Shown in pieces: positions 4,191-60,278 of a stretch of 64,000 nucleotides of DNA; positions within the stretch are counted from its first letter, which is position 1; each line of letters begins with the position of its first letter. Position numbers and translations under genes: made by a program. Location of the stretch: assembly GCA_022495995.1 (NCBI GenBank), contig JAFEMH010000987.1, positions 408,001 to 472,000 on the forward strand, in the 5' to 3' direction. Below the pieces are notes generated by a model. The model made no database searches. It saw nothing but the letters and a program-made list of their open reading frames with translations, and was not told the DNA's origin. The stretch comes from Adenophora triphylla var. japonica. Its lineage: Eukaryota > Streptophyta > Magnoliopsida > Asterales > Campanulaceae.

Positions 4191-5484
4191 TGCCTGTGTT
4201 TTTATACTTGTATTTCTTTCTAGATGACTGAAGACTTGAAAACCTTGAATTGCTCCAAAGAATATATTGATTAACTTGTTCAAAGGGCTCAACCTGTTAA
4301 CTTCCTTAACCGGTCATGACCTCAACTTATCACTCCCTCAACCAGTCAGTTAGTCAACCTATCATGCTCCATCAGTTACTCAGTTACTGCAGTCAGTCAA
4401 GCTTCAACAACAAGTTTCCATCAGTTGACCTAGCATTAATTTCTCTCACTTACTTAGCCTACTACTTAGCTAAAGTTGGTAGAACAGTTGCTATAAATAC
4501 ATTGTTGCCGCCTTGCCAGTAACTAATTCAAGGAATATTCAAGTTACCAGTACTCACAACAACTTCTTTACCAAGTGGAAAATTCAAATATGGTTGTACT
4601 TCAAATCTCAAGCATTCAATCCAGAAAATATTCTCTTTTAATGCTTGTCAGTCCAAGTTATCCCTTCAACCTCTTCAAAGACAACAACTCCATTTGAAGA
4701 CACTATAAATACCTTTCTTAGAGCATTAAAGAGGGTTGGTGAATTGAAGACTTTGAGAGTAAAATTGTCAAGAACTGCAAGTGCTCAAGCATTGAAGTTC
4801 AAGACATTTAGTCCTTATATTCACTAGATCATTTATTAGGACAAACATTGTGCACACTCAATCAATTCTTGTAAGTGTTCCCTAATAAGACTATGTCTGA
4901 AACATATTAATTGACCACACTACACACCCAAGAAAAATCAGTTCAACTTGTGAACACATCTCTTGAAAACACCTGGTCAAACTTGTATCACGATCCATTA
5001 GTGATCACTTTCCTTTAGGCAGCTTTCAATTTTACTTAAAGGTTAAAGCTTACAACTTGTAACAGACTAGTGACATTAATAGCGCACATTTTCTCAAATC
5101 CAAGTTTTGACCAAACTTGGTAGAGGACGTATCAGTTCGTTAACACTGTGAACCTCTCCAAACAACTGTGTCCCTTTGTTTGTGTGTTTGCTTATTTTAT
5201 CTTGTCTTGTAACCGGTTGAGCTCTATCGCCGGTTACAACCCTTTGAATCCTTAATTGTTTTGTCTTGTCTTTCTTATTGGAATATAATTTGCATGATAT
5301 TTTAACTTACTTGAAACTCATTTTCTTAACTGATTATTTGTGTGAGTAAATCAGTAATACTTTATCTGTTGTGTAACTGGTTAACATCGGTTTAGCTTTT
5401 AATAAATTACTTGGCTATTTTTGAAAGGTTTTACAAATAAGTTTTTTCAGGCTATTCACCCCCCTCTAGCCTGTTTTCCTAACA
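4191..5484 (+). repeat. 5' LTR of SIRE-1, lacking its first ~126 bp
   Basis: Matches the LTR at 44239-57775 from 'tgtgtttttatacttgtatt' onward and ends '...ctgttttcctaaca'. The full LTR starts TGTTAGTC at 44239, so the first 126 bp are absent here. Both copies have 'actag' just before the point where similarity begins, a possible microhomology at the break. Confidence 0.8.
4492..4499 (+). promoter_or_regulatory. TATA box in SIRE-1 5' LTR
   Basis: TATAAATA, preceded by U3 sequence with 'aaccggtca'-type motifs at about 4309-4350. The second LTR has the corresponding region at 44500-44680. Confidence 0.5.
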
Positions 5485-5486
5485 AT

Positions 5487-5498
5487 TGGTATTAGAGT
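5487..5498 (+). other. Primer binding site of SIRE-1 (tRNA-Met type)
   Basis: TTGGTATTAGAG directly follows the LTR end after 'at'. It differs by one base from the usual copia site TTGGTATCAGAG, complementary to the 3' end of initiator tRNA-Met. Confidence 0.75.
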
Positions 5499-5552
5499 TT
5501 TCAATTTTTGAAAACATTTTTCCAAGCTTCACAGCTTGAATTGTCGATTTCA

Positions 5553-8544: not shown

Positions 8545-8678
8545 TTGTATTTATAGGTAAAATTTCAGCATGAGTCCGGACGGACTTAGGGTGAAATCAG
8601 GGGGGTTTTGTGAAACTTTGGAAATTGGAGGGGCTTACTGGCAATTCCAGATTTCCTGCAAATGAGTCCGGCCGGACT
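8545..8678 (-). promoter_or_regulatory. U3 promoter of Tat-M LTR: TATA and two palindromes
   Basis: Minus-strand CTATAAATACAAGG (8558-8545) is a good TATA box. Just upstream in that direction are AGTCCG-GA-CGGACT (8573-8586) and the perfect 14-bp palindrome AGTCCGGCCGGACT (8665-8678). The same palindrome, followed by the same 'gag', sits before the antisense gene at 11622. Confidence 0.6.
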
Positions 8679-9081
8679 GAGACTGCATACTAGGGGTATT
8701 TTTGTTTTTTCACTCTGAATTTGATTGAAAGGTGATGGAGAGTTGTGGCATGTGAGCCACGTGTCCCTGTGACTCACAGGCCATGGGAATTTGTGTCATT
8801 ATTTCCCGGTTTTGTCTGTTTTTAAAATAACAGTCCGGAAAATGTCCGAAACGCCCCTGAAAAGTGCCAGAAAGTGCGTTTTTCAGGGAAAGATGTACTT
8901 TTACGTGCGATGACGTGTGTTGAGTACGTTTAGACGTTGGGATGCTCGGGGCAGTCCTGGGACATCTCGTTGGCTTGGCAACGGGGAGCTTAACGGGTTT
9001 CGGTTAACTTGGAGCGGGCCAGTTAACGGATTCCGATTAACTTTCTAACGAATTTTGACGATCCGGATTTGGGTACTTACA

Positions 9082-9123
9082 GTTAGCCCCTCAGCGACGT
9101 CACTTCCGAAGGAGGTGGGGTCG
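9082..9123 (-). other. Polypurine tract and preceding hairpin of Tat-M
   Basis: On the minus strand CGAC, then CACCTCC-TTC-GGAAGTG (one C.A mismatch), then GTCG, then 'ctgaggggctaac' and the LTR. Same architecture, loop and spacing as in Tat-A, with different stem bases. Confidence 0.6.
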
Positions 9124-10290: not shown

Positions 10291-10324
10291 ATTGTGATTT
10301 AACATTCGAAGACAGAATGTTAGT

Positions 10325-11225: not shown

Positions 11226-11621
11226 GTCCTCCTTTATTGCTTTTTAGACAAAATGGGTGTATTGTCCGGAACAATTTGACTTGTATTTGAAAAAAGGCGC
11301 CCTTGAGGCGGAACCTGTACTTTGCACATCTATCTAGTGATTACCTTCTTTTTATTTTGGCAAATAAGAAAGTAGGTTGATCAAAAATAAATAATATGAA
11401 ACATGCATGAAAAATTGAACGGGTCAAAATTTATGCCTATATGCACTGATTATTAATTAATTGCATTGTTGCACGAGCCCGGGGCGGAAGAGGTGTTGGC
11501 TTTGGTTAATTGAAACCATGTGAGCATGCAGATTCACAAAAGCATGAACAGGGCTTGGTTTGGAATTGTTTCCAATTTAAGAGTAACTGGCTGCAGAGTT
11601 GACCAAGTCAACTGCAGTGAG
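11226..11621. other. Spacer between the two antisense genes of Tat-M
   Basis: AT-rich stretch with no recognisable gene. It becomes the presumed 5' flank of the second antisense gene at its right end. Confidence 0.5.
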
Positions 11622-11664
11622 AGTCCGGCCGGACTGAGGATGAATTTTCAGAGTCTTTTAAATT
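11622..11664 (+). promoter_or_regulatory. Putative promoter of the second antisense gene
   Basis: AGTCCGGCCGGACT at 11622-11635 followed by 'gag', identical over 17 bases to the LTR U3 copy at 8665-8681. About 20 bp downstream is the TATA-like TTTTAAAT. The first well-placed start codon is at 11761. The palindrome-to-TATA spacing resembles that in the LTR. Confidence 0.5.
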
Positions 11665-11760: not shown

Positions 11761-13264
11761 ATGGCTCCCTTTCCTAAGCTATCGTCCCGGATGCAAGAGC
11801 GATACTTGGAAAATTTCCAGTCGTGGGTACGGAACCACACGAGGCAAAACAAAGGGTTTTTCGAAGGCTGTTGCGGGATGAAATCTGTTTGGGCTTTGAA
11901 GGAGCTCATGCCAGATTGGGATCTTTTGAGAGCCGCGACTCGTTTCTGGGATGTAAGGAGGAATGTGTACAACTTCTCGTACAACGAAATCACTCCTACG
12001 TTCGAAGATTTTCGGGCCATTCTGGGAGGACCTGAGACGGAACAGCTAGTTCTTCCCTATGCTGGTGGCATAGCCACTGTTGAGAAGTTAGTGTCTCTGC
12101 TTGGTATCTCGACAGGAGAAGCATACGGGATGCTGATATTGAACACTGATTATGTCGACATTTCGGGACTGCCCGATAGATTTGTTGGTAGTGAGGGAAG
12201 CATTTTTGCGTGGGACGCGTTTGCTCTGTGCGCGATTGCTACTCTGTTCACATTCACGTCCCTGGGTGTGTGCCATCATAGTGTACTAGACCTGGTGAGG
12301 CAGTGCCGGAACGGGGGAGACATCGTGCCTTTGGTTCTGGGAGAGACGTTCCTGGGCATAGGTCGGATGGTGACCGGCAGCCGATACATGTGGGGAGAGA
12401 GTCCCGCTATTCTTACCATGTGGTTGAGGGAGAGGTTGCAGATGATGCCCGATGTGCCAATGTCCTGTGACGCTTGGTCCTTTTCTCGACGTCATCTGGT
12501 GATAGGGGCAATCAGGCTGAACTGGAGCTCTGGATGGCCAGACTCCGCATGCATCACTTGCAATGGTGGGTTCCCCACTGGAAGTTACAGACTTGTCGGA
12601 CCGCTCAGGGGGGTCTCTTGGTTGTTAGAGTGCCGGGGTTGTCCCAGACGTCTTTCTACATTCCATCGTTGGTGCTGCGATAGTACGGGCTGGAGCAGGT
12701 GCCACTGACAGTTTAGTTCATGCTGCTACCTTCGAGGTGGGATCTCTACTGATGGAAGATCCTTCGACGCTATTGCTGCTCACGCGGTTGTGGAAATACA
12801 CATCCTTTCCTGCCAGGGTTCTCTTTCACCGGAGAGGGGGCACTGTTCTATCTACGCAGTATCTGAACTGGTATGAAGAGTGTATAGGGGACACACAGAT
12901 GGCTATCTTGTGGAGATGGAGTGAGCTGTTGGGTGTTGATCACCTTGATAGCTCGACCTTGAGGAGGACCGAAGTGGGGGCTAACCCTCGGAATCGTACT
13001 GGGAATGACATGGCTGACTATGAGTCCAATGCTGATCGGGAGGCCAATCAAAGCACGGTTATGATGGCTCAAAGAGAGGCAGCTCAAGACAGAGCTAGGG
13101 AAAGGGGCCAGTATTGGATGTACTACAGCTCGGCTGCAGGGGCGTCGGGAAGGGTCCCTGAGCCGGGTAGAAGGACTATCGGAATATTTCCTGTGAAGGT
13201 GAAGAACACTCGCCGTGGGAAAGGGAAGGGGAAGAAGGATGAAGGACCAAGTACGGGAAACTAG
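11761..13264 (+). pseudogene. Antisense accessory gene of Tat-M (DUF7745/PMD-like), frameshifted
   Basis: I chose the start at 11761 (tccATGGct, MAPFPKLSSRMQERYLENF) because it has a good context and lies about 100 bp after the TATA-like box; the frame itself opens further upstream. Features of this family visible here are LRAATRFWDVRRNVYNFSYN, then EITPTFEDFRAILGGP, LFTFTSLGVCHHSVLDLV and the Trp-rich region. The family often appears in plant Ty3 elements; its function is unknown. The frame is lost near 12530-12700: VVRVPGLSQTSFYIPSLVLR is read in another frame, then stops. The end (12737-13264) continues in a third frame as LWKYTSFPARVLFHRRGGTV to a basic tail, KNTRRGKGKGKK. It runs antisense to pol, just beyond integrase. 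Confidence 0.65.
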
Positions 13265-17433: not shown

Positions 17434-17475
17434 TTCATCAGTTCCACGGTCGGTCCCCTCGGATTCTGGGTCGGT

Positions 17476-22474: not shown

Positions 22475-22485
22475 TTTTCCTTCCT

Positions 22486-22704: not shown

Positions 22705-23555
22705 ACTGTGCTACTTGTGTAATCTTAACTGATCAAAATGTGATATCCCTATTTTACCCTCAACCTACAACTGCTCCTTAACCTTAACCGACAGCAAGCT
22801 CTCATCCGGTCATACCCCTGACCGATCATAATCTTTCAACTGGTCATAAGTTGTAACCAGTCAAGCCTTTAACCGGTCACCTAAGTTCAACCGGTCATCA
22901 AACGCTTAATCGATAACGAACTGCGGCTGGACCAATCCATTTTAACCGGCACCTCTGAAACCCTCTGCTGTCCTTTCAAGTCTTTTCAGCCAATGTCTGA
23001 CACAACAGTGAGATGTGTACCAACTTTGTTTCATAGGTAGATCAATATTTTTATTTTTGATCAAAAAGGTAATCTCTGTATCATTCCTATTTATCCAAAA
23101 GGTTATCTTTTTGTTCATTATTATGTTTAAAATTTAAAATGTTGCACACATGTTCCTAACTATATGCTTCCATATTCTGTATGCATTAAGGTCGTGTCTC
23201 ATTATCCCTATTTTTAAGCTTCAGTTAAAACGTTTTGAACAAATTTTGCTCCTCCCTATAAAACCATTCGTCTCTTCCATTTCTCTCTCACCCTATATAA
23301 AGGATTCAACAACAAACCTTTTTCTTTTTTGAAACTCTCTCAAACTCTCTCAAGCTTTCTTCTCTCTCAATCGGCAAGCCTCAACATCTTTCGAAGATCT
23401 TCAAATTTTCAAACTCTTCTTCATCTCTCATCAATCTTTATCTGGTAACACTTAGAACACTTAGAAATTTTCAAAGTTATGAATATTTTTTTGTATATCT
23501 AATAAAATGTTCTAACTTAAAATGTTGTGTTTTTTTTTATGTTTGATGTTTACAG
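22705..23555 (+). promoter_or_regulatory. Putative internal promoter and leader intron of SIRE env-like gene (copy 1)
   Basis: Between pol and the env-like start: a cluster of 'aaccggtca' type motifs (22795-22960, with the palindrome ACCGGT), TATATAAAG at 23294-23302, a CT-rich leader (ctctctcaaactctctcaag), and a candidate intron 23445-23555 (atctg|gtaaca ... tttacag) that ends directly at ATGGCTCCC. The LTR U3 has the same 'aaccggtca' motifs ahead of its own TATA box. Confidence 0.5.
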
Positions 23556-26500
23556 ATGGCTCCCAAACCAACTCCCAAGAAAGATATATATGGAGGTTAT
23601 ATTCTATCATCTTTCTTTGAGTCTGAGCAAGGCAAGCTTTTGAAAGCTATCCTCGTTAGTGCTGGTGTTCTGCCATTTCTGTTTCCTGAAGGATTCGAGG
23701 ACATTTACTATGAGTTAGTAAATGAGATGTTTGATAATGGGTCTCTAGATGAGAATCCTAAGGATGGTGAAGTGCCGTAGATTATTTCTTCTGTTGCTGG
23801 TGTGCCTGTAACCTTTTCCCCAGCCTCCATTGCTGAAGCCTTCCCTTCTCTTGCCTCAACCAGTCCCTTAACTGTCTCAATGAAGAATATGAAGTTGGCG
23901 TGGGCTCGGATTAGAGGTGAAGAACCCTTCATAACCGGTGAGGGTGAAGAACCCTTCATAACCGGTGAGGGTAACAAGAAAGCTGAACTAGATCCCCTCA
24001 ACTACGCTCTTGCTGAAATCGTTGACCGATGCATCATCTGCCGGTCTGGATCACATCACTGCATAACAATGATCTAATTTGAAGCCATGGCTGCCATTCT
24101 TCTATAAAAAGAAATTTCACAAGGAGAAACCTCTAGCCAGGGCAAATAATGCTAGGCCTTGACATTATCTCCTTGTTAGCAGGGTGTTGAGGAAAAACCC
24201 TGCTATTCTTGCTGCTTCAACCGGTCAACCAAGCTACCCTCAGTAGTCATGGGTAAAATCATTTGATAAATATGAATGGGGAACAATCTCTAAGGAGGCA
24301 ACAACCTCAACCGGTGAAGCCTCAACTGGTGCTCAACCGATTGAAAAGAAGAAGAAGCCCTATAAGCCAAAGGTCAAGAAAGTTGTTGTTGCTGAGCCTG
24401 AGTCCTCTCAACCGGCCACCACTTTACCGGTCAAGAGGAAGGCAACCAATGCCCCATCGGTCAGCACATCCAAACGGGTTACATCGTCTCAACCGATTGC
24501 TCCTTCTACCTCCCCATCAGTCAGACCCAAAAAGACAGCCAAAAAGCAAGTTGTCCTACCCCAAGTACAAAAATTTACAGCCCCTTCTACCTCATCCTCC
24601 TTACCCAAATCCAAACATATCCAAAAATCCTCCACTCAACTGGCCAAAGAAAATGCTAATAGAAGAAAATTGATTGAAGCTGATATTTCAAATTTTGTTA
24701 CTTTCATCCTTAAGAAGTTGTTCTCTCACAAATTTTTGACCGGTCAGGTCCCTATAACCGGCCATGCCTCAAACCTATCGGTTAGAAAGTGTCAACCGAT
24801 TAGAAACCCAACCTTCTACATCTACTACAACAACCCTTGGGCAGTCCAAGACAATCTTATCCCTTCACCCAACTGGGTTCATCCCATTGATCATCTACCC
24901 CTATTCCTCAGAAAATTACTCCAATTCCAAGAGTGCATAAAGACTTTGTTTCTTTGGTGATGTGTACAAATATGTTGACTTTGAGAACACTCACGAGGAG
25001 AAAGGCATCTACTTCAGCAAATACTGCTAATTGAGTGAGTTTGATGGCTCTCTATCCAAGCAGGATCTCTTAAAGCTCTACAACCGATATTGTGATTTGC
25101 TTCCCAATCTGTGAAATGCTATCTACCTTGCTCAAGATCGGTTGCGTCAGGATATGATGGTTCATGCTTTGTATGGGTGATTTTGCAATGTTGTATGAAG
25201 TCCAAGACAAATTGAAAGAGTCGACCCTATCGGTTGGGGAGATATTAACTTCTTGATGATGCGCTTCCACACTTTAATGCTGAGCTTATCTCTTTGGGTC
25301 CACGAAGAAATCAATTGATCAGAAATGTCATGGACCTGGTTGAGAATATGTTCAAAGTGGATAGAGAGATGCAAGTCATGGGGAATGTGAATCTAGATGA
25401 CTTTTTCTCTTCAGTCCACTCTAATAAAAATAAGTGGACTACTACAACCGATGAAGTGATAGAGGATTTATTCAAGGATGATGATGATGGTGATGATGTT
25501 GATTTTTATGATTCTGCTTTGGGTGATGATAGTGAGCACTCTAGCTTCAGCTCCAATTCTAGTGGCCCTGATGATCAAAGGATGTATTTTGTGACACCTC
25601 AACCGACGAGACCGGTTAGGAGATTAGGAGGAGGCATAATTGATACATCATCAGTTACAAGCCTAGGAGGAGAAAAAATTTTGTCTGCTGCCTCATCGGT
25701 TATTCAACTGGTTGAGATGCTCTCAACCAATGCATCTACTAAACCAGTTGAGGAGGAGAAGCTTGTTCTTCTTCTTGAGGATATTCAAGCGCAGAGGCTA
25801 TGGCCAAAAGCACATTTGAAAGTAAAGCTGGACCTTGAACGGTCATCTGCAGAAGTGTTAGCTACTCAAGTTGTTATTCAAGCAAGCCTTCTTGTCAGTT
25901 AAGCCATTTCCCAGCTAAAGGGTAAATCTGTTGAGGAAGTTGATCCTATTTTTGAGGAGGGGGATGCTACACTTTCTGATTTCTTTGAATAGGATGATAC
26001 TGTAGAGTTTAAGGCACCTAAGCCTTTTGAGTATGATCCATTTGATCCTGCTCATCCTCCTGCTGACTTTGATTTCTCAGTAGACCAGAAAGATTTGATG
26101 TCTTCAAAGAACTTCTATACTTCCAAAGCTTCAATTCCACAGTTGTCAAACGGGATGTTCTTATTTGATGTTAATGAGAAAGTCATCAGTCACAGCTCTC
26201 TACAACCGATCCATATGCCTCCATCCTTAGTCGATGAGCTTCAACGCAAAAGGAGCGGGGACGGGAATGCAAACCTATGTGGATGTGGTTGAGATAATGA
26301 AAGTGGGTGCTCCTGCAGCTGATACTCCTCCTTACCAGACCAACACCAAGAGACCAGGTGAGACCAGATTAAGATTTCAGACTCCCAATATCTTAAGGTT
26401 GAAGAAAATAGCTGCTCCTCCTAGAAATGATAAGTCTATTCCTGGAAAGGCTAAGCAGCAACTAGTCATGGACTTCCCTGCCAAACGGTTATCATATATA

Positions 26501-38273: not shown

Positions 38274-38961
38274 CCCGCCGGCACCGCCTGGAGGAAGCTG
38301 AGCACCCTCGACCTCGTCAGCCTCTGTGGGTGTCAAGTCTACCCTCACCTCCCCGTCGGCCATATGCACAAAGAAATGGTCGGGGAATGGAGGCATATCC
38401 ACAATCTCAGGATGTCCAGCACCCATCGGCTCGGGGATAACCAAACCCTGCCCCCCTATACCAGCAGCCTCGGCAGCCTCAGCAGTCCGCCTCACCACCT
38501 GCGGTGATCTCAAAAAAAGTGCCACAAAGTCCGCATAACCCATATCAAGCCGGGCGATAGCGGGGACCCCAGTAGATACTCCGCCTCCTCGCCAATCGGT
38601 TCGGATACCACATGTTCCTGGGAGGATGTTGGGGCGCATAAAGCGGAGCCCACGCATAGTGCTGTCTCGCCACCCGCTCACCCAAGTACATCTCATCAGC
38701 AAGCAATCCAACCAACAATCTGCGGGAAGCAGTCACATCCCGGACAGCACCAACCGTCTCTGAGGCCTCAGGAGTCCAAGGGTAGAGCAAAAACTCGGGC
38801 CTACTGGGACCATCAAGAACAGCCCTCAGCTCAGACTCGCGGATCGTCTTCGGGAACCCCTCAATCCGATTCTCCTTCCTCCAGTAGCGCAAGACGGGCA
38901 CATCCCGAGTCTGGTCCCGCAAAGTGAACGGCGCGACGCCGAAAATCTCATAGACCCATGC

Positions 38962-39050
38962 CTGCAAAAGACACGGAAAGCAGATATTTATAAAGACAGA
39001 AAGACAAGTAACAAGTAAGAGGACAATGAAAATGATGAAAGTTGGCATAC
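38962..39050 (-). other. Intron 2 of antisense PMD gene
   Basis: ctggag|gtatgcc ... cttttgcag|gcatgg; splicing gives ...FVLE-AWVYEIF in phase 0, matching the PMD family layout. Confidence 0.75.
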
Positions 39051-39719
39051 CTCCAGAACAAACTGAAAAGCGTCAAAAGAAGAGGTATTAGACCTCGAGA
39101 CAGTATCCAGGGCCCGATACAGCTCGGCCAAGCCGGCCCCTCCCCAGGAGATATCTCGTACCAGATCCAAGTCCACTAAAGCACCCAACAAAGAAAATCG
39201 GCATACTGGGCCCGAGTTGGGAAAGAGCGCCACTGAGAATCCGTACCAAAGGAATCCCCGGACAAGTGCGTCAAGCCCGTACTGGCCAGCCCTATACCGA
39301 TCAATAGCAGCCCTAACCAGCCTGTACAACTTCCCCGCATCAACACCAAAATTCCTACTCGAGCCCAGGCTAGCACCAAACAACTGGACCTGACGAGCCG
39401 GATCAGCATGAAGAGTATCATCAAAGGGCAGTGCTATGTCTGTGAACCTCAAGCCGGTAAGAACGGCGAAGTCTGTAGGAGTGATCGTGGCCTCTCCCCA
39501 ACTCAAATGGAAGGTATGTGTCGTATCCCACCAAAACTCCCGACACGCCTTCACCACCGCAGTGCACTTCCTGGTCTGGCCCATCTGCAGGACCATGTCA
39601 AAAAGGGGGCCAACCCCAAACTCTGTACTCGCTCCCGAGGACTACCCTCACCGGCCGGCAAGGCCGCCCACAACTCCCCGACCGCCTTAAGGGAGCTGCG
39701 TCCCTTCATCTTCTTCCCC

Positions 39720-39823
39720 TACAGGTAAACACAGCACAGGTATGTGTCATTACTCGCATTTAAAATAATAAACACTTTGTACACGCATGAATTATTCTAT
39801 TGTTAAATAAGAAATTTTTGTAC
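39720..39823 (-). other. Intron 1 of antisense PMD gene
   Basis: gatgaag|gtacaaa ... ttacctgtag|gggaag; the join keeps phase. A similar acceptor region is at 341-365 in Tat-A. Confidence 0.65.
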
Positions 39824-40502
39824 CTTCATCCCGACGCGGGAGCGAAGACCGGTGGACCCATGAAAAGCCAAGCCCGGATAAAAGTCAGACTGATTGTACA
39901 ACAGAAAATGCAGCCTCGAGGGTCGATAATTGCGCAAAGCCCGTCGCCTCCTAGCCTCAATGTCCCCGCCGACGTCACTCCTATCACTCTCCCCGGCATC
40001 GGGATCACCTTCCTCTTCATCATCATCGCCGCCGCCATTGCTGCCACCATTGCCGCCATGCCCGCCACCACTGCCGCCATGCGCCGCGCCGCCGCCATGG
40101 CTGCCTTCATCACCGCCACCATAACCTCCATGGCTGCCATCATCACCACCTCCATAACCTCCATAACCACCATCAAAACCACCACCCATATTGCCATAAC
40201 CACCCCTAAAACTACCAGAACCGTGGCTGCCCCCGGCACCATGGCCACTAGCACCAACTCCTCCGCCATAGCCAAAGAAAGCATCACCCATACCAATGTC
40301 GCCGGAATACGAGCCCAAAGGTTGATGATCTGGGCGACCCATCATGGAAATCACATCGTTGACCCAATCTGGAGGATTATCCATGGCAAGATCTTCACGA
40401 AATCGGCACAAAACAAACGAAAACACTCGGAATAATTTTCGGGCGAAAGCTTGAAAACTCGACGGAGAAGAAGAGGCGTAAAAAGAAGAAGGAGACCGGC
40501 GG

Positions 40503-40668
40503 ATTTAAAGGTCGATCGGCCGAGAAGCGGCCAATAAGAAGAAGGGCCAATCGGCCCTTGATTTTGTGTTTCTTCTGATCGAGCGAACGGTCCAGATCTC
40601 ATCTCAGCAGGCGGATCCCCGTCAAAGTGTCCTTGGCCAATCAGGAGGAAGGGCCGATCGGCCCTTTC
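40503..40668 (-). promoter_or_regulatory. Putative promoter of antisense PMD gene
   Basis: Upstream of the antisense start: perfect 18-bp palindrome AAGGGCCGATCGGCCCTT (40649-40666), AAGGGCCAATCGGCCCTT (about 40542-40559), GGTCGATCGGCC (40510-40521) and TTTAAAT (40503-40509) about 120 bp before the start codon. The motifs match the LTR U3 repeats, including the flank 'ccctttctct'. Confidence 0.5.
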
Positions 40669-41418: not shown

Positions 41419-41419
41419 G

Positions 41420-41735: not shown

Positions 41736-41787
41736 GGTTTGAGACGCCGCACGTCCGCCATTCTCGGGTACTAAACGCCCACTCTTC

Positions 41788-42009: not shown

Positions 42010-43094
42010 TGTTAGTACCCGGTCCGAAAAAAGGCATTTTTAAATGTCTGGCCCAGTTATTTAAGTGAAACCCTAAAAAACCTAATCTTTATTCTGTCAA
42101 ATCCGCCGTCGGCCGTACGCGTGGAAAGTACGCCAGGATATTGTGCCGATCGGCCCTTTCCCTATTGAATGGCCGACCGACCCTTTATTATTGTGCCGAT
42201 CGAACCTAAAACAATTGGTCGATCGACCCTTCTTTCCTGTGCCGATCGGACCTTATATTTAAGGCCGATCGACCCTTTCTCTGGCCCAGCCCAAATACCG
42301 AAGCACTATAAATAGGGGTGCCCGGTATCAGCTTTTCACACACAATTTATTCGGGAGAAACGAGATTACACTTGTTTTACCCGTATTTCTTCCCATATTC
42401 TTCGAATCGCCCTAGATTCGATCCCAAAGTCTTGCTACAATTGGTAAGGCTCTTTTTAATATTTTTGTTCTCTATTATTATTATTGTCGTATTATAATAT
42501 TTGCATGTTTATTTTAATTATGTCTTTATGCTAGATGTAGGACATTTTTAATAGATTTTTAATGCAATAGCCGAGGATGATCTAAGGTTTCGCCCAAAGA
42601 AACCCAATGGATCTAGGAACTATTTCTTACTTTCCACCTTAGTTATAATTGTCCCATGATCAACAATCCCCCAAGGATGAACGTTGATTAGTGCACCTTC
42701 CGAGGGCCTAAATCAAAGGTTCTAGGGTGTGATCATCAACTAATTCTTTCTCTTCCCTCCTCCTTATGCATGATCCCGCTTCTTCTATCTATTCCTGTAA
42801 ACACCGCACACAACCAACACCCCACATGCTAGAAAGACTGATCCGTCGGGCAATAGGAGTGATAGCGTTTCTTCTTCTGTTGTAACTTGACCCCCGAACC
42901 TAATTAAATGCTTAGCCTTTTTTCAAAGCTTTGGGCTATATCAAAGTGGCGTGGCGACTCTCAAAATTAAACTAATATTTTTAATATGGTTTAAATCGAG
43001 TGTCACTAAATGAATATCCCATTTCGGTCTGACATTATATGATTATTAATTTTAAACTTCCGAATGCGCGTTGCATCGGGACGGGGTATTCACA
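42010..43094 (+). repeat. 3' LTR of Tat-B
   Basis: 1085 bp, same length as the 5' LTR, with about 7 substitutions, six of them C/T or G/A. TATAAATA at 42307-42314. Confidence 0.95.
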
Positions 43095-44238: not shown

Positions 44239-45130
44239 TGTTAGTCAAATATATGTATAGATTAGTAATTGCTTAATCCTAATCATTAAATCATTACTAG
44301 TACCCCTAATTTTAACAAGACTACTTAGATTTTTCTACGTATCCCTAGGATCCATTAGTACTAGTGCATGTGTTTTTATACTTGTATTTCTCTCTAGATA
44401 ACTGAATACCTGAAGACCTTGAATTGTTCCAAAGAAGATATTGGTTAACTTGTTCAAAGGGCTCAACAGGTTAACTTCCTAAATGGGTCATGACCTCAGC
44501 TGATCACTCCCTCAACCGGTCAGTTAGTCAACCGGTCATGCTCCATCAGTTACTCAGTTGATGTAGTCAGTCAAGCTTACACAACAAGTTTCCATCAGTT
44601 GACCTAGCATTAATTTCTCTCACCTACATAGCCTACTAATTAGCTAAAGTTGGTAGAACATTTGCTATGAAGACCTTGCTGCCGCCTTGTCAGTAACTAC
44701 TTTAATGAATGTTCAAGTTACCAGTACTCACAACAACTTCTTTACTCAGTGGAAAATTCAAATATGGTTGTACTTCAAATCTCAAGAATTCAATACAGAA
44801 GATATTCTCATTTAATGCTTGTCAGTCCAAGTTATCCCTTCAACCCCTTCAAAGACAACAGCTCCATTTGAAAACACTATAAATACCTTTCTTAGAGCAT
44901 TGAACATGGTTGGTGCATTGAAGACTTTGAGAGTAGAATTGTCAAGAACTATAAGTGCTCAAGCGTTGAAGTTCAAGACATTTAGTCCTTATATTCACTA
45001 GATCATTTATTAGGAAAAACTTTGTGCACACTCAATCAATTCCTGTAAGTGTTCCCCAACAAGACTATGTCTAAAACACATTGATTGATCACACTAAACA
45101 CCCAAGAGAAATCAGTTCAACTTGTGAACA
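44239..45130 (+). repeat. SIRE LTR, left part
   Basis: Starts TGTTAGTC, the inverse of the LTR end CCTAACA. U3 contains 'caaccggtcagttagtcaac' and 'cggtcatg' (44515-44545). Ends in gaaca, the target site of the Athila insertion. Full LTR about 1.42 kb with 57247-57775. Confidence 0.8.
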
Positions 45131-46448
45131 TGATGGATGTGTTTTTACACACCCATTTTACATGTTTACGAACCTATTCTAGGCTAAAAATCCCGAGTTT
45201 TATGTTGTTTTAATACGGTTGTTGAGTGTTTATGAGTACAGGGGAAAAGGATGATTAAGTGTTGATTTTGGTCAATAAAATGGCAAGGAAACCAAGTTGG
45301 AGCGGAGCAGAGCAAGGATATTGGAAAATAATTCGAGATGCAGTTCCAGGCACCAGAGCGGTCGCGCTCTACCTAAGAGCGGCCGCCCTCCATTGAAGAA
45401 AAGAAACCCCAACTCTCGGCCAACAAGCGCGGGCGCGCTCAACCCAGTGCGGTCGCGCTCAAGTGACGTCGTTTTGAAAGCCAGGGTTACTGCCAAAGTG
45501 CGCGGGCGCGCTCAACCCAGAGCGGCCGCGCTTGTCCCGTTTCGCATGCAGTTTCGGCAACTTATGATGGGCAGTCTCAACTTTTCGCACATTTTTCCCT
45601 TGTATTTTGCCCTAGAGTATTTATACCTCAACAGCAGTTTTTAGAAACAATCTTGGATATTATTTTTGTTCTAGGTTTTGAGTTTTCGTAGACAATTATT
45701 GCTCATCAATTTCGGATCTCTCAGGTTTTGATGTTCTTTTATTTTATGATCATTATTGTTTTCGTTATGTCTTTGCGTAGCTAAGTTCTTTAGATTTGCG
45801 GATTGGTTGTAGCGATTACTAGATCTTTATGCTATTGATTTAATTCTTCCCAATTGATCTCTTTCTAGTTCTTCAAAACATTAATCTTTTAATTATTTGG
45901 GTATTGATTCTGCCATTAATTTGGGGATTGATACAATTGAACACTGTTTTGAAGATTAAACCTAATTGAGGCCATAATAGAAATCAAAAGGGTTTAGATT
46001 TAACATTCTATTGTGTTGATTAATTATTTGATTGTTGTGTGGCCGTAACAGAAAACGCAGCTTGATAATAATTAAAAGGGTTGCAATTCGGGCACCACAC
46101 TGTCCCAATCCTTATTTTTGTGAATGAATCCTAGTTTGAGATTAATGTTTTTAGCAATAAAAATAGCATAGGGTGAAAGTAATTGTGAATCCAATCCGTG
46201 AATCTCCGTGTTTATCTGAGTTAATTCGTTACTGTTTAAATCGCGTTCTTTAGTTTTAATCTGTTATTTCTGTTTTAGGATTAGATTATTATTCTCAAAT
46301 CAAAAATCTGTGGTTACCATATTCATTACTTCTACTGCATTTGTTTACCAACAAGTCTCTGTGGTTCGACCCCTGCTCATGCATACTGCTACACCGGTAG
46401 TGAGTACACTTGCTCGGTTTTTATTACTAGAGGAATTTTTCTCCATCA
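45131..46448 (+). repeat. 5' LTR of Athila element
   Basis: 1318 bp. Contains the GC-rich module cluster at 45356-45534 and TATTTATA at 45618-45625. Confidence 0.95.
45356..45534 (+). promoter_or_regulatory. GC-rich palindromic modules in Athila U3
   Basis: Three pairs of the form CGCGGGCGCGCTC - about 6 bases - AGCGGCCGCGCT (the first pair AGCGGTCGCGCTC/AGCGGCCGCCCTC). They lie some 90-260 bp before the TATA-like box. Same pairs at 56147-56326 in the 3' LTR and at 52466-52640 inside the element. Confidence 0.7.
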
Positions 46449-52465: not shown

Positions 52466-52640
52466 GCGTGCGCGGGCGCGCTCGGAAATGAGCGGCCGCG
52501 CTTGATTAAAGGAAAAGAAGCATCACTCTCGGCCGAGCTGCGCGGCGCGCTCAGCGAGCGGCCGCGCTCATTAAAAATCAAAAACATGAGCGGTCTACGC
52601 CATCCAGCGCGGACGCGCTTAAAGGAGAGCGGCCGCGCTC
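52466..52640 (+). promoter_or_regulatory. GC-rich modules ahead of Athila env-like ORF
   Basis: Three pairs: CGCGGGCGCGCTC/AGCGGCCGCGCTT, CGCGGCGCGCTC/AGCGGCCGCGCTC, CGCGGACGCGCTT/AGCGGCCGCGCTC, the same dimer and spacing as in the LTR U3, including the linking 'ctctcggcc'. A CT-rich leader (52680-52770) follows. Confidence 0.6.
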
Positions 52641-53115: not shown

Positions 53116-54404
53116 ATGTCTACCTCTAATCCTAAGCGTAAAAGAGTTACAAAGAAAACCCGGTTCCACCACCATTGTTTGATGAAAACAGATTTGTGGG
53201 TGTTGATGCGTTAAAATTTTTTAATGCTTATGCCGGACGAAGTTTTAACTTAGAGAAGGTGATAGACATTACGGATATGGGGCTAGATAATATTGTAGCG
53301 GGGTATGGTTGGCAAAACTTATTGGTTGCCCAGTGAAGGAGGGAATCGCGAGTTGGTGCGTGAATTTTATGCTAATGCAGCAGCTAGAAAAGGGCTACAT
53401 AACACTTCGTATGTGCGGGGTAGAGAGGTGGGATATACCCGGGAGAGAATTATATCATATTACAACCTCCCTAGACATGTGCAAGCCAATACCTGTGCCT
53501 TCTTGCAACTTGAAAAACAAATGATGAACAACCCCAAAGGTAACCTACACCTAATTGCTTAGGAACATTTGGTGGTCTTCCCTTTGACCCAACTGTGCAT
53601 AAGGGGGTGTTAATTGCTTCTAAATTTCTTCCACCACATATGAAGTACCTTCATAGGATTATCTGTGAGAGGGTGCTCCCATCTTCCCGACCTCACGAGG
53701 TTGGATGGCGTAGAGCTGCATTAATGCATGTCATCCTGACAGGGCAACAAATTGACACCGGGTCAATCATTGCCCATGAGATTAACAGGACGTATCAGCA
53801 GATGGCGAAGAATAGCTACAACTACCCCTTAATGATTACGGGTTTGATGGGGCTCAGTGGAGTCAATTTCACTAATATCCCTAGGGACATAGGCTTGGAG
53901 CCTATCATTACAGAGAAAAAGATTAGGGATAAGAGCCACCCCAAGGGGGGAAATGTGGTTGAGCCGGAGCAAGAGGAAGAACAGGAGGAGGAAGAAGAGG
54001 AAGAACAAGAGGATGATATGGTTGGCGACTGGAGAGCGGACCCAACTGCGGGATTGTACTATCTGTCACATCAGTTAGAGGCGATGGAGCTGCGATTTGA
54101 TCAGAGATTTACCACCCTAGAGCAGAGACAGGCTGCGAATGATGATAGGGTGAGAGCTATTGACGACAGAGTACGGGGTGAGATTGAGGCGAACCAACTA
54201 TGGCGGGCCCAGCACGATAGTAGGTTGGACCAAATTCTTAGTCGGTTGCCTCCTACTGGTTACACATGGCCACAGTTCCCGCCGCAGTACCAGCAGCAGC
54301 AGCAACAATTTCCCAGTGGCTCATCCGGACAAGGAGAGCAGTGGCAGCAGCAGCAGCAATTCCCTGGAGGCTCTTCTAGCCAATGGGGTTATCAGCCACA
54401 GTGA
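53116..54404 (+). pseudogene. Env-like ORF of Athila element, frameshifted
   Basis: I chose the start at 53116 (MSTSNPKRKRVTKKTR), a basic N-terminus. After a 1-base frame change it reads LFDENRFVGVDALKFFNAYA, then REFYANAAARKGLHNTSYVR and GREVGYTRERIISYYNLPRH, the conserved core of the plant transposon-protein family found after pol in Athila elements (PF20167 type). From 53595 it is open: LPSSRPHEVGWRRAALMHVI, TGSIIAHEINRTYQQMAKNS, then an acidic block (EEEQEEEEEEEQEDD), a coiled-coil-like part (FDQRFTTLEQRQAANDDRVR) and a Gln-rich tail. No signal peptide or membrane segment is visible, so 'envelope' is a positional name only. Confidence 0.7.
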
Positions 54405-55921: not shown

Positions 55922-57241
55922 TGATGGATGTGTTTTTACACACCCATTTTACATGTTTACGAACCTATTATAGGCTAAAAATCCCGAGTTTTATGTTGTT
56001 TTAATACGGTTGTTGAGTGTTTATGAGTACAGGGGAAAAGGATGATTAAGTGTTGATTTTGGTCAATAAAATGGCAAGGAAACCAAGTTGGAGCGGAGCA
56101 GAGCAAGGATATTGGAAAATAATTCGAGATGCAATTCCAGGCACCAGAGCGGCCGCGCTCTACCTAAGAGCGGCCGCGCTCCATTGAAGAAAAGAAACCC
56201 CAACTCTCGGCCAACAAGCGCGGGCGCGCTCAACCCAGTGCGGTCGCGCTCAAGTGACGTCGTTTTGAAAGCCAGGGTTACTGCCAAAGTGCGCGGGCGC
56301 GCTCAACCCAGAGCGGCCGCGCTTGTCCCGTTTTCAGTACCAGATTTCGGCAACTTATGATGGGCAGTCTCGACTTTTCGCACATTTTTCCCTTGTATTT
56401 TGCCCTAGAGTATTTATACCTCAACAGCAGTTTTTAGAAACAATCTTGGATATTATTTTTGTTCTAGATTTTGAGTTTTCGTAGACAATTATTGCTCATC
56501 AATTCCGGATCTCTCAGGTTTTGATGTTCTTTTATTTTATGATCATTATTGTTTTCGTTATGTCTTTGCGTAGCTAAGTTCTTTAGATTTGCGGATTGGT
56601 TGTAGCGATTACTAGATCTTTATGCTATTGATTTAATTCTTCCCAATTGATCTCTTTCTAGTTCTTCAAAACATTAATCTTTTAATTATTTGGGTATTGA
56701 TTCTGCCATTAATTTGGGGATTGATACAATTGAACACTGTTTTGAAGATTAAACCTAATTGAGGCCATAATAGAAATCAAAAGGGTTTAGATTTAACATT
56801 CTATTGTGTTGATTAATTATTTGATTGTTGTGTGGCCGTAACAGAAAACGCAGCTTGATAATAATTAAAAGGGTTGCAATCCGGGCACCACACTGTCCCA
56901 ATCCTTATTTTTGTGAATGAATCCTAGTTTGAGATTAATGTTTTTAGCAATAAAAATAGCATAGGGTGAAAGTAATTGTGAATCCAATCCGTGAATCTCC
57001 GTGTTTATCTGAGTTAATTCGTTCTGTTTAAATCGCGTTCTTTAGTTTTAATCATTATTTATTTGTTTTAGGATTAGATTATTATTCTCAAATCAAAAAT
57101 CTGTGGTTACCATATTCATTACTTCTACTGCATTTGTTTACCAACAAGTCTCTGTGGTTCGACCCCTGCTCGTGCATACTGCTACACCGGTAGTGAGTAC
57201 ACTTGCTCGGTTTTTATTACTAGAGGAATTTTTCTCCATCA
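55922..57241 (+). repeat. 3' LTR of Athila element
   Basis: 1320 bp, TGATGGATGTG ... TCTCCATCA. Differs from the 5' LTR by about a dozen substitutions plus small clusters near 56335 and 57050. Confidence 0.95.
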
Positions 57242-57775
57242 GAACACATCTCTCAAAAATACTTGGTCAAACTTGTATCACGATCCATTAGTGATAACTT
57301 TCCTTTATACAGCTTTCAATTTTACTTAAAGGTTAAAGCTTGCAACTTGTAATAGACTAGTGACATTAATAGTGCACATTTTCTCAAATCCAAGTTTTGA
57401 CCAAACTTGATAGAGTACAAAGCAGTTCATTAACACTGTGAACGTCTTTAAACAACCGTGTCCCTTTGTTTGTGTGTTTGCTTATTTTATCTTGTCTTGT
57501 AACCGGTTGAGCTCTATCAACAGTTACAACCCATTGAATCCTTAACTATTTTGTTCTTGTCTTTCTTATTGTAATAAAATTTGCATGATATTTTAACTTA
57601 CTTGAAACTCCTTTTCTTAACCGATTATTTGTGTGAGTAAATCAGTAATACTTTATCCGCTGCGTAACTGGTTAACATCGGTTTAGCTTTTGATAAATTG
57701 CTTGGCTATTTTCGAAAGGTTTTACAAAGAAGTTTTATCAGGCTATTCACCCCCCTCTAGCCTATTTTCCTACCA
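57242..57775 (+). repeat. SIRE LTR, right part
   Basis: Continues the LTR from the duplicated gaaca; matches 4960-5484 at roughly 93-95%. Ends '...ctattttcctacca' followed by only 'att' of the primer-site region. Confidence 0.8.
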
Positions 57776-57778
57776 ATT

Positions 57779-58800
57779 AGCCTAACACAAGACATTCTAA
57801 GGGAAGTGAGACCAGATAGAGTACATCCTATTGAAAATGTGATTGGTGATGTTTTTGGTCCCAGAATGACTAGAGGCCAAATGAGGAGTATGGAAGAACA
57901 ACACACTCTATTCTCCTTTGCAATGGTCTCAGACATAGAACCAAAAAAGACTGAAGAAGCACTCAATGATCCCAGCTCGATAAAAGCTATGCAAGAAGAA
58001 TTCAATCAGTTCGACCAATATAAAGTATGGGAATTAGTGCCTCGTCCAAATGATCAGACAGTGATAGAAACAAAATGGGTTTTTAGAAATAAATTAGATG
58101 AGTCTGGAAAAATAACTAGGAACAAAGAAAGACTTGTAGCCAAAGGGTACAGACAAGAAGAAGGAATTGATTATGACAAGATGTTTGCCCATATTGCTAG
58201 ATTAGAAGCCATTAGGTTGTTCCTTGCCTATGCTGCCTACAATGAGTTCAAGTTATACCAAATGGATATGTAAAGTGCTTTCCTCAATGGAGAACTTCAA
58301 GAGCTTGTATATGTTGATCAACCTCCCGGGTTTGAAGATCCCAAGAAGCCTAATCATGTCTATAGGTTGAACAAAGCTTTGTACGGCCTCAAGCAAGCAC
58401 CAAGAGCATGGTATGAAACTCTCTCCAAATTCTTACTTAGTGAGAAGTTCGAAAGAGGTAAAATTGATACAACATTATTCATTGCTAAGCATAATGGTCA
58501 TTCATTGTTAGTTCAAATATATGTAGATGATATTATATTTGGCTCTACTAACGAAAACTTATGCAAGAGATTTGAGAAACTTAGGCAAATCAAGTTCGAG
58601 ATAAGCAAGATGGGAGAATTAATGTTCTTCCTTGGATTTCAAGTCAAACAAACTCAAGAATAAATCTTCATCTATCAAGACAAATATACAAATGATTTTA
58701 TCAAGAAATTTGGTATTGACTCTGCTCACCCTCAAAGAACTCCAATGGCTACTAATGTACATCTTGATAAAGATGAGTCTGGTAAGAAAGTAGATATGAC
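57779..58800 (+). pseudogene. Reverse transcriptase of a second SIRE copy (SIRE-2)
   Basis: Coding sequence starts abruptly right after the LTR end at SLTQDILREV, inside the integrase-RT linker, so gag, protease and integrase are missing. RT motifs: YKVWELVPRPNDQTVIETKW, NKERLVAKGYRQEEGIDYDK, a stop in MDM*SAFLNG, then [20 protein letters not shown] and the active site [11 protein letters not shown] second stop is near 58661. Copia-type RT, non-functional. Confidence 0.85.
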
Positions 58801-59412
58801 ACTTTACCGAGGTAGATAGTATCTCTACTTTACTTAACTGCTAGTAGACCAGATATCATGTTTGACGTATGTGTATGTGCTAGGTTTCAAGTTGATCCTA
58901 GAGAATCTCACCTTCAAGCTGTTAAAAGAATCATAAGATATATTATGGAAAATGTTTACTTAGGTTTATGGTACCCTAGAGATTCATCTTTTACTTATTC
59001 AGATGCTGATTTTGCAGCTTGTATGGTCACAAGGTAAAGTACTAGTGGGACTTGTCAATTTCTATGTCACCGATTGATTTCTTGGTCCTGTAAGAAGCAA
59101 GCTTCAATTTCCACTTCTACAACTGAGGCTGAGTACATAGCTGCTGGAAGTTGCTGCTCACAAATCCTTTGGATGAACAACAACTGGTGGACTATGAAAT
59201 TCCAACTGAATTATGTCTTATCTATTGTTACAACTCCTCAACTATCTTAGTTTCCAACAATCCTGTGATACATTCCATGTTGAAAAGGGTAATGTTGTTC
59301 TTTTAAAAGTTCATATTGATTATCAGTTAGCTGTTATTGACAAAACCCCTAGACACTAAACGTTTTTTATTCCTTAGAGGTAAATTAGGCATGATTGATA
59401 TACATGGATGAA
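58801..59412 (+). pseudogene. RNase H of SIRE-2, degraded
   Basis: Frameshifted. STSGTCQFL, then LISWSCKKQASISTSTTEAE and YIAAGSCCSQILWM are readable. About 43 bp present in SIRE-1 (kHIDIKYHFLKDH region) are deleted near 59278. It ends at the same place as the SIRE-1 copy. Confidence 0.75.
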
Positions 59413-60278
59413 CTGTGCTAACTTTGCTACTTTGTGTAAGATCAACTGATCAAGAGGTGATATCTCCATCTTACTCTTAACTTACACCTTTTCTCCTAAA
59501 CCTTAATCGACGACTTCTTCTCACCCGGTTATATCAGTCAACCGGTCTAATACTCTTGACCGATCATAATCAACCGGTCAAGCCTTCAAGCGTTTACTCT
59601 CAATCGGTCACTCCAGTTCAATTGATCACCTAACTCCTAACCAACAATGAACTACAGCCGTATACAATCCATTTTAATTGGCGCGTCTGACATCCCTGTT
59701 GTCCTTTCAAATCTTTTCAGCTGCTAGTCTGACACAACTGTGAGTTGTCTACCAACTTTGTTTCATATGTTGATTAAAATTTTATTTTGATAAAAAAGGT
59801 CATCTCTGTATCATTCCTATTTATCCAAAAGGTTATCCTTTTGTTCATTATTGTGTTTAAAATTTAATCTGTTGCACACACGTTCCTAATTTTATGATTT
59901 CATATTATTATTTGTATTAAGTTCGTGTATCATTATCTCCTATTTTCAAGCTTCAGTTAAAACGTTTTAAACAAATTTTGCTCTTTCCCATAAAAACCCT
60001 TCGTATTCCCCATCTCTCTCTCATCCTCTTCACCCTATATAAGGGATTCATAAACAAACTATTCACTTTTTCAAAACTCTTTCTCTTGCTCAAACTCTCT
60101 GCTCTCAATCTTCATTGCAAGCAAGTTCTTCAAATCTCTCTTCATCTCTTATCATCCTTAATCTGATAACACTTAGAACACTTAGAAATTCTCAAAGTTA
60201 TAAATATCTTTTGTTTTATCTATATATCTAATATATTCTAACTTGAAATGTTATGTTTTTTATTTCTGATGTTTGTAG
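59413..60278 (+). promoter_or_regulatory. Putative internal promoter of SIRE-2 env-like gene
   Basis: 'cccggttatatcagtcaaccggt' type cluster at 59520-59640, TATATAAGG at 60036-60044, CT-rich leader. The intron donor is mutated (ctgataac instead of ctggtaac) while the acceptor before the start codon remains. Confidence 0.45.

What the first reader, a model, noticed from the sequence alone, without database searches (positions are those of the whole stretch)
4191..60278. Four unrelated retrotransposons repeat LTR U3 palindromes just upstream of their accessory gene
Seen: Tat-M has AGTCCGGCCGGACT+gag in its U3 (8665-8681) and again at 11622-11638 ahead of the antisense gene. Tat-B has GGCCGATCGGCC-type palindromes in U3 (31863-32000) and at 40510-40668 ahead of the antisense PMD gene. 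Athila has the dimer CGCGGGCGCGCTC-N6-AGCGGCCGCGCT in U3 (45356-45534) and at 52466-52640 ahead of the env-like ORF. SIRE has 'aaccggtca' motifs in U3 and at 22795-22960, ahead of a TATA box, CT leader and leader intron. Inference: each element copied its LTR promoter module to give the accessory gene its own promoter, on either strand, so that one set of host factors would control both transcripts.
Basis: partly seen in the sequence, partly recalled or inferred. Interest (0 to 1): 0.9.

Follow-up and report, generated by a model that had tools for sequence, protein, structure and literature searches.

The report
Shared LTR and accessory-gene promoter palindromes
Several jumping genes nested in this plant DNA carry the same short mirror-image DNA signs in their main promoter and in front of an extra gene, which suggests that both are switched on together; this layout was published for one group of such elements in 2010 and is seen here in other groups too.

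Summary
In detail: clear for three Ty3/gypsy elements, weaker for SIRE. In Tat-M, Tat-B and Athila the accessory-gene 5' flank matches the element's own U3 better than any other internal window (0 of 253, 172 and 178 windows reach it; 0 of 1000 shuffles each). The flanks do not match the U3 of the other elements, and sharing is with U3, not R-U5. SIRE fails with its 5' LTR U3 (21 of 78 windows, 94 of 1000 shuffles) and passes with its 3' LTR U3 (0 of 78, 3 of 1000).

Best reading: an internal accessory-gene promoter sharing a palindromic cis-module with the LTR. The kind is known: Bousios et al. 2010 (PMC2829016) reported such palindromes in Sirevirus LTRs, with 77 of 79 linker copies upstream of ENV. 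What looks new, within the searches made, is its presence in Ty3/gypsy elements, twice for antisense genes of PMD/DUF7745 type. The elements are not four unrelated ones: two are Tat. Whether the trans-acting factor is a host protein or the accessory protein is undecided. No expression data and no further family members could be reached.

The parts
8556..9083 (-). Tat-M 3' LTR U3 (element on minus strand), TATA at 8555, palindromes at 8573-8586 (1 mismatch) and 8665-8678
   Evidence: the second LTR is not in the window, so the LTR is inferred by eye from the PPT, the TG start and the TATA box
11621..11638 (+). Tat-M internal copy, 18 nt shared with U3; TTTAAAT at 11657; ATG at 11761
11761..12705 (+). 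Tat-M antisense accessory ORF, DUF7745-like (E 2.5e-4, below the gathering score); a relative 49% identical over 70% of the ORF carries PF24924
31728..32024 (+). Tat-B 5' LTR U3 with six palindrome units (31862-31992), TATA at 32025
40510..40666 (-). Tat-B internal module: three palindromes ahead of the antisense PMD gene; TTTAAAT directly after the proximal one (40509); ATG at 40384
38548..40384 (-). Tat-B antisense PMD gene: Gly-rich first part 39806-40384 (no Pfam match), PMD pieces 38991-39641 (E 1.9e-18) and 38548-39072 (E 1e-4, below the gathering score)
42010..42306 (+). Tat-B 3' LTR U3 with the same kind of palindromes (LTR pair 99.4% identical)
45356..45534 (+). Athila 5' LTR U3 palindrome cluster, TATTTATA at 45618
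52466..52640 (+). Athila internal module: palindrome dimers, part of it probably a copy of a U3 block including spacer
53116..54401 (+). Athila accessory gene region: begins MSTSNPKRKRVTKKT (NLS-like by eye); frame broken; Transposase_32 (PF20167, E 1.1e-14) in 53544-54401
56143..56323 (+). Athila 3' LTR U3 palindrome cluster
4308..4364 (+). SIRE 5' LTR U3 motifs, including CGGTCATGACC at 4311
44482..44538 (+). SIRE 3' LTR U3 motifs (AACCGGTCA at 44514 and 44530; GGTCATGACC at 44486)
22804..22897 (+). SIRE linker motif cluster before the env-like gene, including CGGTCA-N6-TGACCG at 22807; repeated at 27565-27658 in a tandem duplication
23290..23790 (+). SIRE env-like gene start: TATATAAA near 23295, CT-rich leader, possible leader intron, ATG at 23556 (MAPKPTPKKD...), stop within this stretch

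Best explanation
Each element carries a family-specific palindromic cis-module in its LTR U3 and a second copy in front of its accessory gene, where it serves as the upstream part of an internal promoter, on the sense strand (Athila, SIRE) or the antisense strand (both Tats). One DNA-binding activity would thereby act on both the genomic transcript and the accessory transcript. Shown: the shared modules, their U3 specificity, their placement and (for the gypsy elements) their family specificity. Inferred: promoter activity, factor binding and co-regulation. I hold a host factor slightly more likely than the accessory protein as the trans-acting factor.
For: In Tat-M, Tat-B and Athila the accessory 5' flank is the internal region most similar to U3 (0 of 253, 172 and 178 windows that do not overlap the flank reach it; 0 of 1000 shuffles each); the same holds with the 3' LTR U3 of Tat-B and Athila (0 of 172, 0 of 178, 0 of 1000 each) and for SIRE with its 3' LTR U3 (0 of 78; 3 of 1000). 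Scores between elements are at background, 16-20. U3 12-mer positions (overlapping, so not independent) fall in the flank 7 of 9, 9 of 9 and 14 of 14 times; R-U5 12-mers 0 of 0, 2 of 2 (a CT-rich tract) and 0 of 1. A TATA-like element or TTTAAAT lies downstream in five of the six gypsy U3s and flanks. SIRE inverted repeats GGTCA-N0-6-TGACC: 4 hits in the window, in the two U3s and the two tandem copies of the linker. Precedents: Sirevirus RMs, 77 of 79 linker copies upstream of ENV, and the 4 RM-bearing Sireviruses without ENV lack linker copies (PMC2829016); maize Grande gene23 has its own promoter (stated in PMC7264820).
Against: No transcript data. One copy per family (no second Tat-M LTR in the window). 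TTTAAAT is a weak TATA (it also occurs at 31757 in the Tat-B U3), the Athila flank showed no TATA-like pattern, and other ATGs (52847, 52942) lie between the Athila module and the accessory ATG. SIRE fails the alignment test with its 5' LTR, its motif also occurs in the env-like ORF, the inverted repeat is absent from the second SIRE copy's linker, and the motif cluster is poorly conserved between the two SIRE copies (0.60-0.64 identity; the other 12 blocks 0.57-0.90). The whole Tat-B module folds well as RNA too (z -4.2). Three of the four accessory genes have broken reading frames here.
Confidence: 0.6

Rival explanations
1. Self-encoded regulator: the accessory protein (PMD, DUF7745, Transposase_32 kinds) binds its own family's palindromes as a dimer, at the LTR and at its own promoter, and activates or un-silences both. 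This would be a circuit like foamy virus Tas or Arabidopsis VANC.
For: The flanks match only their own element's U3. The Athila protein starts with PKRKRVTKK, NLS-like by eye. PMD and DUF7745 look distantly related (hhalign P 5e-4 over 71 columns, probability only 31.5%). VANC21 binds a 9-bp motif repeated in non-coding regions of its own element (PMC5735166 passages). Retand antisense TRP28 proteins are proposed to bind DNA (PMC11963269 passages). Host PMD proteins MAIN/MAIL1 act on genes and TEs, with a promoter motif whose direct binding was not shown (PMC7156037 passages). The SIRE motif cluster turns over while motifs remain, as reported for VANC targets. Tat-B shows no pol yet keeps the PMD gene.
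Against: No DNA-binding domain was identified. AlphaFold models are too poor to judge (pLDDT 31.5 and 49.8). Four RM-bearing Sireviruses lack ENV (PMC2829016 Table 3), so the sites exist without the local accessory gene. Similar CGG-CCG cores in unrelated elements point to a host factor.
Confidence: 0.3
2. RNA-level or silencing role: the palindromes fold in RNA and feed small-RNA production or host epigenetic recognition; the promoter position is secondary.
For: Palindromic motif clusters in maize Sirevirus LTRs attract excess small RNAs (described in PMC10760457 and PMC5311732 passages). The U3 modules of Tat-B and Tat-M fold better than shuffles (z -7.4 and -3.8), and so does the whole Tat-B internal module (z -4.2, 0 of 200 shuffles).
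Against: The Athila U3 and internal modules do not stand out (z -1.45 and -1.58), nor does the Tat-M internal module (z -1.9). It does not explain the position at the accessory gene.
Confidence: 0.1
3. Neutral copying or chance: recombination or template switching placed U3 fragments there without function.
For: The Athila module includes shared non-palindromic spacer, so a copying event probably occurred. Most accessory genes here are damaged.
Against: In three gypsy elements the copies sit at the same kind of place, sharing is with U3 and not R-U5, and the Tats share the motif without surrounding sequence. Chance similarity is excluded at 0 of 1000 shuffles for three.
Confidence: 0.06

Closest known systems
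Sirevirus repeated motif (RM) boxes (Bousios et al. 2010, PMC2829016; abstract, passages, sections 9 and 11 read)
   Same: Family-specific palindromes, 12 of 13 with a CGG-CCG core, ahead of the TATA box in the LTR and again ahead of the accessory (ENV) gene; an internal promoter proposed. The SIRE half-site CGGTCA here matches half of the Osr8 box CGGTCAGACCG (by eye).
   Different: Reported in 13 Ty1/copia Sireviruses, 9 of them with ENV. Here three Ty3/gypsy elements, two with antisense genes. The Tat-B core is CCG-AT-CGG, the reverse order.
Maize Grande gene23 and other antisense accessory genes (PMC7264820 passages; the original Grande paper not read)
   Same: Antisense accessory gene between pol and 3' LTR with its own promoter.
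   Different: No shared LTR module was mentioned in the passages seen.
VANC anti-silencing proteins of VANDAL transposons (PMC5735166 passages)
   Same: A family-specific short motif repeated in several non-coding regions of one element.
   Different: DNA transposon; binding of an element-encoded protein is shown there, untested here; the word palindrome does not occur in that text.
Foamy virus LTR plus internal promoter driven by Tas (abstract starts in search listing)
   Same: An LTR promoter and an internal promoter share one regulator.
   Different: Animal retrovirus; the regulator is known to be virus-encoded. A comparison of working, not of descent.

Membership tests
Sirevirus RM architecture | Palindromic repeated motif in U3 upstream of TATA | tested here: met
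   Tat-M 2, Tat-B 6, Athila several units; SIRE CGGTCATGACC
Sirevirus RM architecture | Further copies upstream of the accessory/ENV gene | tested here: met
   SIRE by motif and with the 3' LTR U3, not with the 5' LTR U3
Sirevirus RM architecture | At least 8 copies per element (one LTR plus linker) | tested here: inconclusive
   Counting hits in the 3' LTR plus flank: Tat-B 8 (2 mismatches), Athila 11 on the plus strand (2 mismatches), Tat-M 3 (3 mismatches). The paper's own counting threshold was not seen
Sirevirus RM architecture | CGG-CCG core signature | tested here: inconclusive
   Met by eye in Tat-M and Athila (CGGCCG); SIRE has CGGTCA...TGACC(G); Tat-B is CCG-AT-CGG
Sirevirus RM architecture | Element is a Ty1/copia Sirevirus | tested here: not met
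   Tat-M has a Ty3/gypsy-type RNase H match and Athila RT, RNase H and integrase matches; Tat-B gave no pol; the SIRE has copia gag, with RVT_2 beyond its second LTR
Self-encoded transactivator circuit (Tas/VANC-like) | Element-encoded protein binds the shared motif | not testable with these tools
   needs EMSA, DAP-seq or ChIP
Self-encoded transactivator circuit (Tas/VANC-like) | Internal promoter active | not testable with these tools
   no expression data held
Tat elements with antisense PMD-type gene | PMD-type gene antisense, upstream of the 3' LTR | tested here: met
Tat-B PMD, E 1.9e-18 on the minus strand of a plus-strand element; Tat-M DUF7745 only below the gathering score.

The most novel reading that the evidence does not exclude
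Plant LTR retrotransposons of several lineages have repeatedly evolved a retrovirus-like regulatory circuit: a nuclear accessory protein of the PMD/DUF7745/Transposase_32 kinds recognises its own family's palindromes in the LTR and in its own internal promoter, on either strand, and so controls or un-silences its family. The so-called env-like gene of Athila would then be a transcription regulator, not an envelope.
Probability: 0.25. Interest if true: 0.88.

Novelty: new variant of a known kind. Interest (0 to 1): 0.55.

Why it matters
The role of accessory genes in plant LTR retrotransposons is described as unknown in the papers seen (PMC7264820, PMC11963269; passages). A palindromic module shared between LTR and accessory promoter in Ty3/gypsy as well as Ty1/copia elements gives a direct, testable handle: which protein binds it, and does the accessory gene feed back on the LTR? 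It would also give a sequence signature for annotating accessory-gene promoters genome-wide.

Tried and rejected
Related elements: viral contigs scanned with Athila pol, a Tat-M RNase H piece, A1 and A2, and genome contigs with A1; no relative. Protein searches found one relative for the Tat-M ORF, one for the PMD piece and none for the Athila ORF, too few for covariation. The own-genome search did not complete.

Structure: AlphaFold models of the Tat-M ORF and the Athila ORF were too poor for fold searches, so none was run. PDB sequence searches gave only E 0.62 and 0.92.

CpG decay as a sign of selection: substitutions between the LTRs of a pair inside the modules are too few (2 of 7 in Tat-B, 2 of 16 in Athila). 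A strict inverted-repeat scan (6-nt perfect arms) finds none of the Athila units and none of the Tat-B U3 units, so it was used only for Tat-M and SIRE.

'The SIRE cluster is conserved as a promoter' was rejected: at 0.60-0.64 it is among the least conserved of 14 blocks between the two SIRE copies; only the leader block (0.57) is lower. 'Internal modules do not fold as RNA' was also changed: one search had cut off one Tat-B palindrome; the whole module gives z -4.2, so I raised that rival from 0.07 to 0.1.

Papers: 10 of 10 searches used. A paper on maize Sirevirus palindromes (PMC4728375) is not held and is known here only through other papers' passages. For gypsy elements I noticed no report of this layout in the listings; lists were capped and subscription papers are not covered.
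Full report
WHAT IS IN THE WINDOW. The 64 kb is a nest of plant LTR retrotransposons. A SIRE-type Ty1/copia element has LTRs at 4186-5487 and 44360-45130 + 57242-57778; the second LTR is split by an Athila element (LTRs 45131-46448 and 55922-57241, 98.3% identical). A Tat-type element on the minus strand (Tat-M; 3' LTR ending near 9083) lies inside the SIRE. A Tat-type element on the plus strand (Tat-B; LTRs 31728-32813 and 42010-43095, 99.4% identical) lies in the SIRE env-like region. Copia gag is at 5844-6284 and RVT_2 at 57761-58660 (the latter beyond the second SIRE LTR); gypsy-type RNase H is in Tat-M, and RT, RNase H and integrase are in Athila.

CHECK OF THE OBSERVATION. Tat-M: the 14-bp palindrome AGTCCGGCCGGACT is at 8665 (U3) and 11622, inside a shared 18-mer. 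With up to 3 mismatches the only other hit in 64 kb is a third copy at 8573, again in U3. Tat-B: six units at 31862-31992 in U3 and three at 40510-40666. The promoter-proximal unit has the same letters (GGCCGATCGACC) in both places, read in the direction of each transcript, and is followed by TTTAAAT in front of the antisense gene. SIRE: clusters of AACCGGTCA-like motifs in U3 and in the linker.

MORE THAN CHANCE? I slid 200-bp windows over each element's internal region and scored local alignment to its own U3, leaving out windows that overlap the flank. The accessory-gene flank scored 36 (Tat-M), 35 (Tat-B) and 62 (Athila). No other window reached it (0 of 253, 0 of 172, 0 of 178), nor did any of 1000 dinucleotide shuffles of U3. 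The flank of one element against the U3 of another scored 16-20, the background. SIRE with its 5' LTR scored 22: 21 of 78 windows and 94 of 1000 shuffles reached it, so it fails. With the 3' LTR the SIRE flank scored 30: 0 of 78 windows and 3 of 1000 shuffles reached it; Tat-B and Athila held with their 3' LTRs (35 and 67; 0 of 172, 0 of 178; 0 of 1000 each). The SIRE 5' LTR U3 is CpG-poor (observed/expected 0.09), so decay of the motifs there is a likely reason for the difference, but two LTRs were tried and one failed. The second SIRE copy's linker scored 21 and 28 against the two U3s (no control run).

A control with shared words: U3 12-mer positions found inside the element lie in the accessory flank in 7 of 9 (Tat-M), 9 of 9 (Tat-B) and 14 of 14 (Athila) cases, although the flank is 2.3%, 3.7% and 7.1% of the internal region; SIRE has 1 of 1 with a flank of 20%. 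R-U5 12-mers give 0 of 0, 2 of 2 (a CT-rich tract), 0 of 1 and 0 of 0. Overlapping words are not independent.

SIRE at motif level: AACCGGTCA with at most 1 mismatch is at 6.5/kb in U3, 5.9/kb in the linker, 2.9/kb in the env-like ORF and 0 in the gag part and pol end. The inverted repeat GGTCA-N0-6-TGACC has four hits in the window, in the two U3s and the two tandem copies of the linker, and none in the second SIRE copy. I found that pattern after looking, so it is suggestive only.

COPY OR CONVERGENCE. In Athila the shared stretch includes spacer that is not palindromic; with most palindromes masked the score is 26, reached by 2 of 1000 mononucleotide shuffles (highest 32). That suggests a copied block. 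In the two Tats nothing beyond 16-18 nt is shared, which looks like multiplication of a site and not like copying of a promoter.

ANATOMY. In U3 the palindromes lie ahead of TATA boxes (Tat-M TATA 8555, Tat-B 32025, Athila 45618). In the Tat flanks they lie ahead of TTTAAAT (Tat-M 11657, Tat-B 40509) and then the ATG (11761, 40384); Tat-B has a pyrimidine-rich leader. The Athila flank shows none of the three TATA-like patterns tried, but a pyrimidine-rich stretch follows the module; other ATGs (52847, 52942) precede 53116. SIRE has TATATAAA near 23295, a CT leader and a possible leader intron before ATG 23556; in the second SIRE copy the TATA-like stretch and the ATG are there but the possible intron donor is not. 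The SIRE motif cluster is at 0.60-0.64 identity between the copies; the other 12 blocks range from 0.57 (leader) to 0.90. Both copies keep several motifs. CpG observed/expected is 1.25 and 1.11 in the Tat-B and Athila U3 and 0.97 and 1.71 in their modules, against 0.73 and 0.66 in their internal regions. Tat-M differs: 0.96 in U3, 0.36 in the module, 0.77 inside. SIRE: 0.09, 1.11 and 0.38.

ACCESSORY GENES. Tat-B: antisense PMD (E 1.9e-18). Tat-M: antisense, DUF7745-like (E 2.5e-4, below the cut-off), with a relative 49% identical over 70% of it that carries PF24924. hhalign of the two gives P 5e-4 over 71 columns but only 31.5% probability, from two-sequence profiles, so a distant kinship is suggested and not shown. 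Athila: Transposase_32 (E 1.1e-14) with an N-terminus MSTSNPKRKRVTKKT that reads like a nuclear localisation signal (my reading, no predictor run). The Athila and SIRE frames and the Tat-B PMD are broken; the Tat-M ORF is open over 343 codons but its completeness is unknown. Tat-B shows no similarity to the Tat-M or Athila pol pieces, so it may be non-autonomous, yet it keeps the gene and the modules.

PRIOR ART. Bousios et al. 2010 (PMC2829016; abstract, passages, sections 9 and 11) described palindromic repeated motifs in 13 Sireviruses, 12 with a CGG-CCG core, clustered in the upper half of the LTR ahead of the TATA box, with 77 of 79 linker copies upstream of ENV, and took this as support for an internal ENV promoter. 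The four RM-bearing elements without ENV had no linker copies. They compared with other Ty1/copia elements and called the motif Sirevirus-specific. The SIRE part of this finding is therefore known in kind. I noticed no report of the same layout in gypsy elements in the listings, which are capped and cover open-licence papers only. That an antisense accessory gene can have its own promoter is stated for maize Grande (PMC7264820 passages). PMD is a frequent extra domain of plant gypsy elements (PMC9289625 passages).

HOW IT MOST LIKELY WORKS. An internal promoter that shares the LTR's palindromic module, so that one binding activity serves both (0.6). Which activity is open. For a host factor: similar CGG-CCG cores in unrelated elements and species, and RM-bearing Sireviruses without ENV. 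For the accessory protein: each gypsy family has its own palindrome, the gene products are of kinds with nuclear or chromatin links (Athila by its N-terminus; host PMD proteins MAIN/MAIL1, PMC7156037 passages), and VANC21 does this in VANDAL21 (PMC5735166 passages), as Tas does in foamy viruses (abstract starts). An RNA-level role is not excluded: the Tat-B and Tat-M U3 modules (z -7.4, -3.8) and the whole Tat-B internal module (z -4.2) fold better than shuffles, while the Tat-M internal module (z -1.9) and both Athila modules (z -1.6 internal, -1.45 U3) do not stand out.

LIMITS. One copy per family (two for part of the SIRE), mostly with damaged genes; no transcripts; no other family members, because the own-genome search did not complete.

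VERDICT. A real and well-placed feature, known in kind from Sireviruses, here extended to Tat and Athila elements including antisense genes: a new variant of a known kind, interest 0.55.

Noticed in passing
22303-27066 and 27064-31830: A 4.76-kb tandem duplication (99.1% identical) whose first copy ends about 103 bp into a Tat-B LTR start, so it arose after the Tat-B insertion (or is an assembly artefact).
   Followed up: partly
32814-42009: Tat-B shows no similarity to the gypsy pol pieces of Tat-M or Athila, yet has nearly identical LTRs and an antisense PMD gene: a possibly non-autonomous element that keeps its accessory gene.
   Followed up: partly
10319-10462: A stretch on the plus strand of Tat-M resembles part of a Tat-B PMD piece (52% over 48 aa), upstream of the DUF7745-like gene: a possible remnant of a second antisense gene.
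   Followed up: no
61759-63587: Remains of another gypsy pol on the minus strand next to the second SIRE copy.
   Followed up: no
2511-4170: What looks by eye like another Tat-type LTR, whose short U3 has TCCGCGCGGA ahead of its TATA box; a 10-bp palindrome alone is not significant and its accessory region lies outside the window.
   Followed up: no
17441-18580 and 21212-22501: Two minus-strand ORFs in the Tat-M region are about 50% identical over 163 aa; the first has a G-patch match. Either a duplication within Tat-M or a second element.
   Followed up: no
11591-11617: Directly before the Tat-M palindrome lies a second imperfect inverted repeat, CTGCAG..TTGACCAAGTCAA..CTGCAG, with W-box-like TTGAC cores (recalled).
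   Followed up: no
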